From: an uncultured Cryomorphaceae bacterium | Lineage (GTDB): Bacteria; Bacteroidota; Bacteroidia; Flavobacteriales; Schleiferiaceae | Direction of reading: 5' to 3' | DNA length: 64,000 nt | Assembly: GCA_913031435.1 (NCBI GenBank) | Contig: CAJWFD010000006.1 | Span: forward strand, 1-64,000 | Shown: one piece after another, positions 30,731 through 33,176 of the stretch | Position numbering within the stretch: the stretch's first letter is position 1 | Layout of the letters: the number at the start of each line of letters is the position of its first letter | Translations under genes and position numbers: made by a program | The notes under the pieces: generated by a model | Told to the model about the DNA's origin: nothing | The model's input: only the letters and a program-made list of their open reading frames with translations | Databases searched by the model: none

Positions 30731-30928
30731 TCACTCAAAATAAAACAAAACTTCAATTTTAATTTTTAAGCTCTGGGCTATTTTCATGGCCAGCTCCAAA
30801 CTTGGTTTGTATCGATATTTTTCAATCGAAATAATCGTCTGCCTACTCACACCAACTTCTATCGCCAATTCCTCTTGCGTAAAACTCATTTTTTGCCTGT
30901 ATTCTCTGACAGTATTCATTAATATCAT
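30731..30928 (-). CDS. Small XRE-family helix-turn-helix regulator
   Basis: 65 residues, essentially one Cro/CI-type HTH: FTQEELAIEVGVSRQTIISIEKYRY with recognition helix around SRQTIISIE. This short class commonly controls an adjacent membrane protein gene. The start may be the second ATG (30919, MNTVREYR). It begins one base after the four-helix membrane protein gene, so it is the last gene of a leftward three-gene unit. The palindromes TGTAAA-N6-TTTACA upstream of the unit are its most likely operators (inference). Confidence 0.88.
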   Translation of the reverse strand: MILMNTVREYRQKMSFTQEELAIEVGVSRQTIISIEKYRYKPSLELAMKIAQSLKIKIEVLFYFE

Positions 30929-30929
30929 A

Positions 30930-31355
30930 CTATGATGTGCGATATAAGTACAGTTGAAATAGTGATTTAATGAAGGAAACTATTAGAAGTAAGACCAGTA
31001 CGAAAAATAATATTGCTCCATTCTTATTAAACGACGAACCTGTCAATAAAACGCCAATAAAGACAAATAGAGACAGCTCGTAGAGTACATAACCCAATTT
31101 ATAAGATTTGGAATTAATCATATCATCCCGTTCATCTTGAATCATTTTCTGTTTAAAAGACAACTCAAGAAGTGCATAAGCAGCTGAAAAATAAATGATA
31201 GCAAACACAGTAATCTGAATTGCTTTGCTCGAAACATGTGCCATATCCATTGAATTTAACCTGTGTTCATAAAAGAATGGCATGTAAATCAACGAGAATA
31301 GAACGGCAAATATTATTTCAATTAAAATTGAGCGCTCTCTTTTAGAAAACTTCAT
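30930..31355 (-). CDS. Four-helix membrane protein of an XRE-linked operon
   Basis: 141 residues with four predicted membrane helices (about 10-30, 45-65, 85-105, 112-132). The cytoplasmic loop after helix 2 holds KQKMIQDERDDMINSKSYKLGY, resembling the DERxxxIxxKA loop of the DUF2178-type membrane proteins that are usually found with small XRE regulators. No enzymatic motif is visible. It lies between the TolQ-like gene (14-base gap) and the regulator (1-base gap). Confidence 0.75.
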   Translation of the reverse strand: MKFSKRERSILIEIIFAVLFSLIYMPFFYEHRLNSMDMAHVSSKAIQITVFAIIYFSAAYALLELSFKQKMIQDERDDMINSKSYKLGYVLYELSLFVFIGVLLTGSSFNKNGAILFFVLVLLLIVSFIKSLFQLYLYRTS

Positions 31356-31369
31356 AAGCGACAGTATTA

Positions 31370-31786
31370 TTATTTCTGAATTACCCTTAGAATAAGTATC
31401 GCAAGTCTGGATATCGCGTAAGTAAATAGACCAAACAGCGGTGATAAAAGCGCTATTTTCAGTCCACCAGCTAAAATTGCAGGAGCAACTGGTCCTCCAA
31501 ATGCTTCTATCGCATCAAATGCACCAATTAGACCAATGAAAGCACCGATAAATCCTAAAGTCATTCCTAATACGCCACAATCGTTAACATGCTTCAACAT
31601 TTTACGTGACACTTCCAGATTAGAGGAGATGGTGAAAAAACCCCTTGCTATAAAGTATATAGACAGCAGCAAGCACATAAGGATAAGGGACATAAATAGA
31701 GCGCCACCTTCTAAAAATCTATTTAATAAGGTTGTTCCAACTAGTCCTGTAACAATTGCCATAATTCTAAATGTTTTAAGTTTCAT
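31370..31786 (-). CDS. Short MotA/TolQ/ExbB-like membrane protein
   Basis: 138 residues with about four hydrophobic segments. The stretch VLGMTLGFIGAFIGLIGAFDAIEAFGG followed by APAILAGGLKIALLSPLFGLFTYAIS resembles the core of the MotA/TolQ/ExbB proton-channel family (the GL..A / PA..A.GL..AL.TT.FGL pattern), but the protein is shorter than TolQ or ExbB (about 230 residues) and no ExbD/TolR partner is adjacent. First gene of the operon with the four-helix protein and the XRE regulator, behind a promoter flanked by palindromes. Confidence 0.7.
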   Translation of the reverse strand: MKLKTFRIMAIVTGLVGTTLLNRFLEGGALFMSLILMCLLLSIYFIARGFFTISSNLEVSRKMLKHVNDCGVLGMTLGFIGAFIGLIGAFDAIEAFGGPVAPAILAGGLKIALLSPLFGLFTYAISRLAILILRVIQK

Positions 31787-31821: not shown

Positions 31822-31853
31822 TTTTTTATGTAAAGCTAACTTTACATAAAAAA
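31822..31853. promoter_or_regulatory. Putative operator A, perfect 14-base inverted repeat
   Basis: TTTTTTATGTAAAG and CTTTACATAAAAAA are perfect inverted copies separated by CTAA. The core TGTAAA-N6-TTTACA (31829-31846) has the same half-sites and spacing as operator B, 36 bases away centre to centre. It covers the -33 region of the leftward promoter. A terminator is an alternative, but it would end no obvious transcript, as the nearest leftward genes start downstream of it. Confidence 0.6.
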
Positions 31854-31960: not shown

Positions 31961-32033
31961 GGTGATGTAGCTCAGTTGGTAGAGCAAAGGATTGAAAATC
32001 CTTGTGTCGGCGGTTCGATTCCGTCCATCACCA
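31961..32033 (+). tRNA. tRNA-Phe (GAA)
   Basis: A 73-base cloverleaf. The acceptor stem GGTGATG pairs with CATCACC (31961-31967 with 32026-32032). The anticodon stem AAGGA/TCCTT encloses loop TTGAAAA with anticodon GAA at 31994-31996. The D-arm has AGCTCAGTTGGTAGAGC, and the T-arm has GGTTCGATTCC. Discriminator base A; the CCA end is not encoded. A promoter box lies just upstream and a terminator just downstream, so it is a single-gene unit. Confidence 0.98.
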
Positions 32034-32038
32034 CATCA

Positions 32039-32068
32039 AAGCCCTTCAGTTTACTGAGGGGCTTTTTT
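32039..32068 (+). terminator. Intrinsic terminator of tRNA-Phe
   Basis: An 11-bp stem (AAGCCCTTCAG with CTGAGGGGCTT, one G-T pair) with loop TTTA, followed by T5, starting 5 bases after the tRNA. Confidence 0.92.
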
Positions 32069-32069
32069 A

Positions 32070-32202
32070 TTTCAACGCAGTATTTAATAAAAAGTAGGGT
32101 ACACGTGGATTATCGCTTCTTACAAACACCATATTGCAAATGATTTAATTTTAATTCAAATGGAGTATCGTTTCCTGACTTTATCCGTGTAATACAAAGA
32201 AT
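32070..32202. other. Intergenic stretch before the duplicated-domain gene
   Basis: No gene, exact TAnnTTTG box or convincing hairpin is visible between the tRNA terminator and the ATG at 32203. No partial tRNA-Phe 3' end (attachment site) is repeated here. The promoter for the downstream gene must lie in this stretch but cannot be placed. Confidence 0.5.
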
Positions 32203-32802
32203 ATGACTGAGTTAAACTTCTACTACCCTTTTGCAATGTTTGCCCAAAATGTCAACCCCATTTTCATCGAGGCAATCTGGGGTAACAAAAAAAATGATGA
32301 TGGCACTTTGGCTGCAGAGATTCATCAAGCACAATGGCAGGAGTATCTGGAGATTTTCAAAGATAATACGGTATTGACTTTTCTGTATTTCTACATGCAC
32401 AGCGAAACAAACGACCAGCGCCTAATGGATCAGTTCATTACTCGCAAATATGACATACAGATTGAAAAGGAGTTGGAGGAAAGAGAGGAAAACGAGATTG
32501 CCACAGAAATCACGGAGCTTAATTATTATTACCCAATGTCCATGTTCATTCACAACGTCGACCACCATTTCATAGAAGAGGTTTGGGGCAAGGACCAATG
32601 GTATCAGGGCAAGCATCTTTCCACTCACCTTATTAATAAGTGGGAATATTATTTTCTTCAGAAATCGAGAGAAAACAACAAGCAAACTTTCGTACAATTC
32701 TATATTAAACTCAACAGTCACTGGAGAAGACAGTTAGATCTTCATATTGCAGCCATGTACTCCGAAAAAATCGCGTTAGCTCATGGTCGAATAGTCAGAT
32801 AA
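32203..32802 (+). CDS. Unrecognised protein made of two tandem copies of an ~80-residue domain
   Basis: 199 residues, no signal peptide or membrane segment, rich in aromatic residues. Residues 2-~82 and 104-~185 are two copies of one unit in register at offset 102 (103 in the second half). Shared positions include TELN, YYP, MF, NV, FIE and WG at 2-27/104-129, W45/W147, Y48/Y150, TF at 59-60/162-163, FY at 63-64/166-167, D76/D179 and I79/I182. A charged linker, KELEEREENEIA, separates them. I do not recognise the family and cannot assign a function. The gene stands alone between tRNA-Phe and a small coiled-coil gene, with codon use like its neighbours as far as can be judged by eye. Confidence 0.8.
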   Translation: MTELNFYYPFAMFAQNVNPIFIEAIWGNKKNDDGTLAAEIHQAQWQEYLEIFKDNTVLTFLYFYMHSETNDQRLMDQFITRKYDIQIEKELEEREENEIATEITELNYYYPMSMFIHNVDHHFIEEVWGKDQWYQGKHLSTHLINKWEYYFLQKSRENNKQTFVQFYIKLNSHWRRQLDLHIAAMYSEKIALAHGRIVR

Positions 32803-32960: not shown

Positions 32961-33176
32961 ATGCACCCTTTGAAAAAAGACGAACATAAGTTGTTAAATC
33001 GTATGAAGTTTGAAGCCAAAAACGTGCTTGAACATCTAAACCGTGTGGCTGAAGACAGTAAAAAAATCAACCAACAAGAAGTGGAACGTAGACTCCTAGA
33101 GATTGGTAGACATTCTAGAGAATTGGCTCAAGTTCAAAGAGCTATTGACTTGGAAATTCAAAAAAGCGGTAAATAG
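32961..33176 (+). CDS. Small charged helical protein
   Basis: 71 residues from the ATG at 32961 (MHPLKKDEH); the frame is open from 32934. It is almost entirely predicted helix with a heptad-like pattern (LNRMKFEAKNVLEHLNRVAED, VERRLLEIGRHSRELAQVQ). No cysteine, signal or membrane segment in this form. Function unknown. The pirin gene follows after 63 bases. Confidence 0.55.
   Translation: MHPLKKDEHKLLNRMKFEAKNVLEHLNRVAEDSKKINQQEVERRLLEIGRHSRELAQVQRAIDLEIQKSGK

What the first reader, a model, noticed from the sequence alone, without database searches (positions are those of the whole stretch)
32203..32802. Unrecognised protein consisting of two tandem copies of an ~80-residue aromatic-rich unit
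Read directly: residues 2-~82 and 104-~185 align almost gap-free (offset 102, then 103). Sixteen identities fall in the first 26 positions (TELN, YYP, MF, NV, FIE, WG), and W, Y, TF, FY, D and I are conserved further on. I do not know a family with this signature, so it may be an undescribed domain. The clear identity between halves suggests a fairly recent or constrained duplication. A pseudo-dimeric binding protein is one possibility (inference).
Basis: partly seen in the sequence, partly recalled or inferred. Interest (0 to 1): 0.7.

Follow-up and report, generated by a model that had tools for sequence, protein, structure and literature searches.

The report
Internally duplicated orphan protein beside tRNA-Phe
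A small marine bacterium and one close relative carry a conserved gene, beside a phenylalanine tRNA gene, for a protein built of two copies of an aromatic-rich unit with no recognisable relatives in any library searched; the gene and the duplication are real, but what the protein does is not known.

Summary
ORF 32203-32802 encodes 199 aa. Residues 2-87 and 104-190 share 30 identities, with a local alignment score of 134 against a maximum of 60 in 10,000 shuffles. The gene is real: the only homologue found, in a second Cryomorphaceae MAG (FRAM18_bin126), is 93% identical and syntenic, with dN/dS 0.06 and substitutions of 10/4/39 by codon position. None of the 13 differences between the two proteins falls on the 60 residues shared by the halves. 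No Pfam, NCBIfam, PHROG, PADLOC or PDB family matches convincingly. A profile of the halves finds no relative in the other 23 genomes of the genus, 88 genomes of the family, or about 400 each of order, class and phylum; phage, plasmid and IMG/VR searches also found none. In relatives that keep tRNA-Phe beside pirin the gene is missing. This points to one gain in this lineage, probably by horizontal transfer, because the internal duplication is far older than the split of the two species. AlphaFold2 models are low-confidence (pLDDT 38-47) and all-helical, so the fold is unresolved. Best reading: a soluble, helical, pseudo-dimeric accessory protein from an unsampled gene pool. It is a genuine ORFan family, but of modest interest without a function.

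The parts
32203..32802 (+). 199-aa protein gene with internal tandem duplication (24.4 kDa, pI 5.6, no Cys, no transmembrane stretch)
   Evidence: orthologue in L030/L002 with dN/dS 0.06
32206..32463 (+). unit 1, residues 2-87 (pI about 4.6)
32464..32511 (+). acidic linker, residues 88-103 (EKELEEREENEIATEI)
32512..32772 (+). unit 2, residues 104-190 (pI about 8)
31961..32034 (+). tRNA-Phe(GAA) immediately upstream; flank that varies between species on both sides
32038..32065 (+). terminator-like hairpin after tRNA-Phe, suggesting the gene has its own promoter in 32066-32202
   Evidence: consensus match only; conserved in the orthologue
32964..33176 (+). conserved 70-71-aa ORF (MHPLKKDE...), the downstream neighbour in all relatives examined with this region complete; not part of the duplicated protein

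Best explanation
A lineage-restricted (ORFan) accessory gene. Shown: it is a real protein-coding gene under purifying selection, made of two homologous units of about 86 residues from an old internal duplication, and lying between tRNA-Phe and a conserved 70-aa ORF/pirin pair in one sublineage of a marine Cryomorphaceae genus. Inferred: it was gained once by horizontal transfer from an unsampled (mobile-element or phage-like) gene pool, at a site beside a tRNA gene where other genes also come and go. Inferred: the product is a soluble cytoplasmic, mostly helical protein whose two units pack as a pseudo-dimer through the conserved aromatic residues, with an acidic first unit plus linker and a neutral-to-basic second unit, and it acts by binding a partner rather than as an enzyme. 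The binding role is a guess from composition and symmetry.
For: Duplication statistics. Orthologue 93% identical in a syntenic position in an independent MAG. dN/dS 0.06, against 0.11 for pirin and 0.04 for HMG-CoA reductase next door; codon-position substitutions 10/4/39. 0 of 13 orthologue differences at the 60 residues identical between halves, P = 0.008. Relatives with tRNA-Phe and pirin close together lack the gene: G005, G006, G007, G015, G018, G021, and G017, which has an unrelated lipoprotein gene there. Absence from the genus, family, order, class and phylum samples. GC3 0.49 against 0.28-0.41 in seven other genes of the window, compatible with foreign origin. Charge split pI 4.6/8.0. 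Helix-like spacing of conserved residues: 16 pairs at i,i+4 against 9.6 expected. Low-confidence models are all-helical or nearly so. No hydrophobic stretch of transmembrane strength.
Against: Both AlphaFold2 models have mean pLDDT below 50, so helix packing and the pseudo-dimer are unproven. The i,i+4 excess was picked after the fact; the combined test of spacings 3+4+7 gives P = 0.13. No att-like repeat of the tRNA end was found and no integrase gene was seen beside it, so the transfer route is unsupported. GC3 of one short gene is weak evidence. Vertical descent with loss in the other species is not formally excluded.
Confidence: 0.35

Rival explanations
1. An old vertically inherited gene that was lost in most of the genus and family and survives only in this pair of species.
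For: Strong purifying selection and an old internal duplication mean the gene had a long history somewhere.
Against: It needs many independent losses: no trace in 23 other genomes of the genus or 88 of the family, and the empty arrangement is seen in both nearer and more distant relatives.
Confidence: 0.15
2. A counter-defence, defence or other phage-interaction gene carried as cargo at a tRNA-side hotspot.
For: Position beside tRNA-Phe, patchy presence, and different cargo at the same place in other species: an XRE regulator with two membrane proteins in the window, an SPFH protein in G020, a lipoprotein in G017.
Against: No PADLOC, PHROG or phage-collection match (the best PHROG E-value of 0.02 is at chance level). 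No IMG/VR relative. No integrase seen. A single gene, and more strongly conserved between two species than arms-race genes usually are.
Confidence: 0.2
3. A remote member of a known helical family that the profile of four sequences is too thin to reach.
For: Only two distinct sequences exist per half, so sensitivity to remote homology is limited; weak PHROG scores (phrog_18780 E 0.02, phrog_8145 E 0.02) appear.
Against: Pfam found nothing even at E 10 for any of the four half sequences. PDB profile hits (fucose-binding lectin 6htn, ETV6) are chance-level, and the lectin match rests on short W..WY stretches. Foldseek gave no match, but the model is poor.
Confidence: 0.25
4. Not a gene: a chance open frame or a shadow of an antisense ORF.
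For: Antisense frames of 99-107 aa exist.
Against: dN/dS 0.06 in the sense frame, third-position excess of substitutions (10/4/39) and internal homology between halves.
Confidence: 0.01

Closest known systems
Homologue in CAJJCK010000226.1 (uncultured Cryomorphaceae bacterium FRAM18_bin126; loci L002/L030)
   Same: 93% identical over all 199 residues, same two-unit build, same position between tRNA-Phe and the 70-aa ORF/pirin
   Different: Nothing of substance; the genes on the far side of tRNA-Phe differ
Internally duplicated pseudo-dimeric proteins in general (a way of building proteins, not a family)
   Same: Two homologous halves joined by a charged linker
   Different: No sequence relation to any known example was detected; the fold is not established

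Membership tests
Any Pfam-A / NCBIfam family | Score at or near the curated cut-off for the whole protein or either half | tested here: not met
   No Pfam family for the whole protein or halves, at E up to 10 for the four halves; only NCBIfam hit E 0.25, 10 bits against a cut-off of 434
PHROG phage protein families | Significant profile match (E < 0.001) | tested here: not met
   Best E 0.019-0.047, different families for different segments
PADLOC defence proteins | Profile match to a defence model | tested here: not met
   None for the 199-aa protein
Fucose-binding lectin (PDB 6htn) | Sequence match over a whole repeat or domain | tested here: not met
   Profile E 0.002 but no single stretch passes; the single-sequence search gives E 0.44, resting on short W..WY segments
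ORFan / taxonomically restricted gene | Real coding gene with no homologues beyond a narrow lineage | tested here: met
   dN/dS 0.06 and only one homologue found in all genomes searched; metagenome collections could not be searched
Pseudo-dimer of two like-folded domains | The two halves adopt the same fold and pack together | tested here: inconclusive
   AlphaFold2 pLDDT 38 (whole) and 47 (half); similar helix order in each half but not reliable

The most novel reading that the evidence does not exclude
The roughly 86-residue aromatic-rich unit is an undescribed protein domain with a fold or function of its own, circulating in unsampled mobile elements of polar marine flavobacteria, and here fused into a pseudo-dimer.
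Probability: 0.3. Interest if true: 0.45.

Novelty: new member of a known kind. Interest (0 to 1): 0.27.

Why it matters
ORFans under strong purifying selection with an old internal duplication show that protein families can have a long history that present genome collections miss. The two halves give an internal control (30 shared residues) for which positions matter, so the protein is a manageable target for a structure. Without a function it stays a catalogue entry rather than a surprise.

Tried and rejected
Searches for relatives that gave nothing: IMG/VR by protein, by half-profile, by C-terminal sub-profile and by two degenerate DNA patterns; GenBank phages and PLSDB plasmids by tblastn (one chance hit in a terminase at E 3); genus, family, order, class and phylum genome samples. 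Weak hits at E 0.001-0.01 (L003, L004, L027, L031-L036) were set aside: they score only 16-21 bits, cover part of the unit, and most carry stops or fall inside longer unrelated frames; L004 lies in a sugar-transporter gene and L027 in a run of secreted-protein genes. L003 and L031-L036 were not read individually. The genome-contig scan found only FRAM18_bin126. Duplication of the tRNA 3' end as an att site: none. Fold search with the low-confidence half model: no match, uninformative. Lectin and ETV6 PDB hits rejected as chance. A literature search for the Fram Strait MAG set gave nothing in the library. The DNA alignment used the wrong strand of L002 and was replaced.

Full report
Observation. 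The ORF at 32203-32802 (+) reads ATG to TAA and encodes 199 residues. Its halves align with one single-residue gap and 30 identities over about 88 columns. The local score is 134, whereas 10,000 shuffles never exceed 60 (Gumbel P of about 4e-12). Half of the identities lie in the first 27 positions (TELN.YYP..MF..NV...FIE..WG). The remaining part is weaker but still above chance on its own (score 55, 0.04% of shuffles). There is no meaningful DNA-level similarity between the halves, so the duplication is old.

Is it a gene? The one homologue found, in a second genome of the genus (G020, the same contig as CAJJCK010000226.1, an uncultured Cryomorphaceae MAG named FRAM18_bin126), is 93% identical and the same length. 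Comparing the two, dS is 0.49 and dN 0.029, giving dN/dS 0.06. Neighbours give 0.11 (pirin), 0.04 (HMG-CoA reductase) and 0.10 (the GHMP-kinase-like gene; name by my own reading, no Pfam hit). Substitutions fall 10/4/39 on codon positions 1/2/3. None of the 13 amino-acid differences touches the 60 positions that the two halves share (P = 0.008). So it is a conserved protein-coding gene in which the repeated residues are the constrained ones.

Surroundings. The gene lies between tRNA-Phe(GAA) (31961-32034, followed by a terminator-like hairpin) and a conserved 70-71-aa ORF, then pirin, HMG-CoA reductase and a further gene. In the orthologue's genome the order from tRNA-Phe onward is the same, but the genes on the other side of the tRNA differ: XRE regulator, 141-aa membrane protein and MotA/ExbB-like protein in the window, against an SPFH protein in G020. 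In relatives that keep tRNA-Phe near pirin (G005, G006, G007, G015, G018, G021) there is no homologue in the gap; G017 has an unrelated lipoprotein gene there on the other strand. No duplicated tRNA end or integrase was seen.

Distribution. No match in the 23 other genomes of the genus, and none convincing in 88 genomes of the family, 396 of the order, 395 of the class and 395 of the phylum with profiles of the halves or of the whole (the order, class and phylum are samples, and other phyla were covered only by the pattern-based scan). None in phages, plasmids or IMG/VR. The halves are 31-34% identical to each other while the orthologues are 93% identical, so the duplication predates the split of the two species by a wide margin. 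Together with absence from nearer and more distant relatives this favours one gain from elsewhere over birth in this lineage. The third-position GC of 0.49, higher than in the seven other genes compared (0.28-0.41), agrees, but weakly. The transfer itself is inference.

What it may be. The protein is acidic overall (pI 5.6), has no cysteine and no stretch hydrophobic enough to span a membrane. Unit 1 is acidic (pI 4.6), the linker very acidic, unit 2 near neutral to basic (pI 8.0). AlphaFold2 with the few available sequences gives essentially all-helical models with a similar helix order in both halves, but at pLDDT 38 (whole) and 47 (half), so neither the fold nor the pseudo-dimer is established. 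No Pfam, NCBIfam, PHROG, PADLOC or PDB family fits. I commit to a soluble helical pseudo-dimeric binding protein as the likeliest reading, at about one in three; phage-related cargo and a remote member of a known helical family remain open.

Verdict. Observation confirmed; interpretation partly supported (two homologous units and no known family: yes; recent duplication: no; pseudo-dimer: unresolved). It is a genuine taxonomically restricted gene, a known kind of thing, with modest interest until a relative, structure or partner is found.

Noticed in passing
32964-33176 (+): A 70-71-aa ORF (MHPLKKDE...) upstream of pirin is conserved across the genus in every locus examined with this region complete, with no Pfam match at E 0.01; a small conserved protein of unknown function.
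   Followed up: partly
30731-31786 (-): Beside tRNA-Phe on the other side: an XRE-type regulator (HTH_3), a 141-aa membrane protein without a Pfam match and a short MotA/ExbB-like protein; G020 instead has an SPFH/Band 7 protein there, so the tRNA flanks look like a site of gene turnover.
   Followed up: partly
L007:2643-3140: In genome G017 a lipoprotein-like gene (166 aa, weak DUF6567 similarity, E 0.011) occupies the gap between tRNA-Phe and the 70-aa ORF where the window has the duplicated gene.
   Followed up: partly
31822-31853: A perfect 14-nt inverted repeat (TTTTTTATGTAAAG / CTTTACATAAAAAA, 4 nt apart) lies upstream of the MotA/ExbB-like gene, at its likely promoter or a regulator site.
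   Followed up: no
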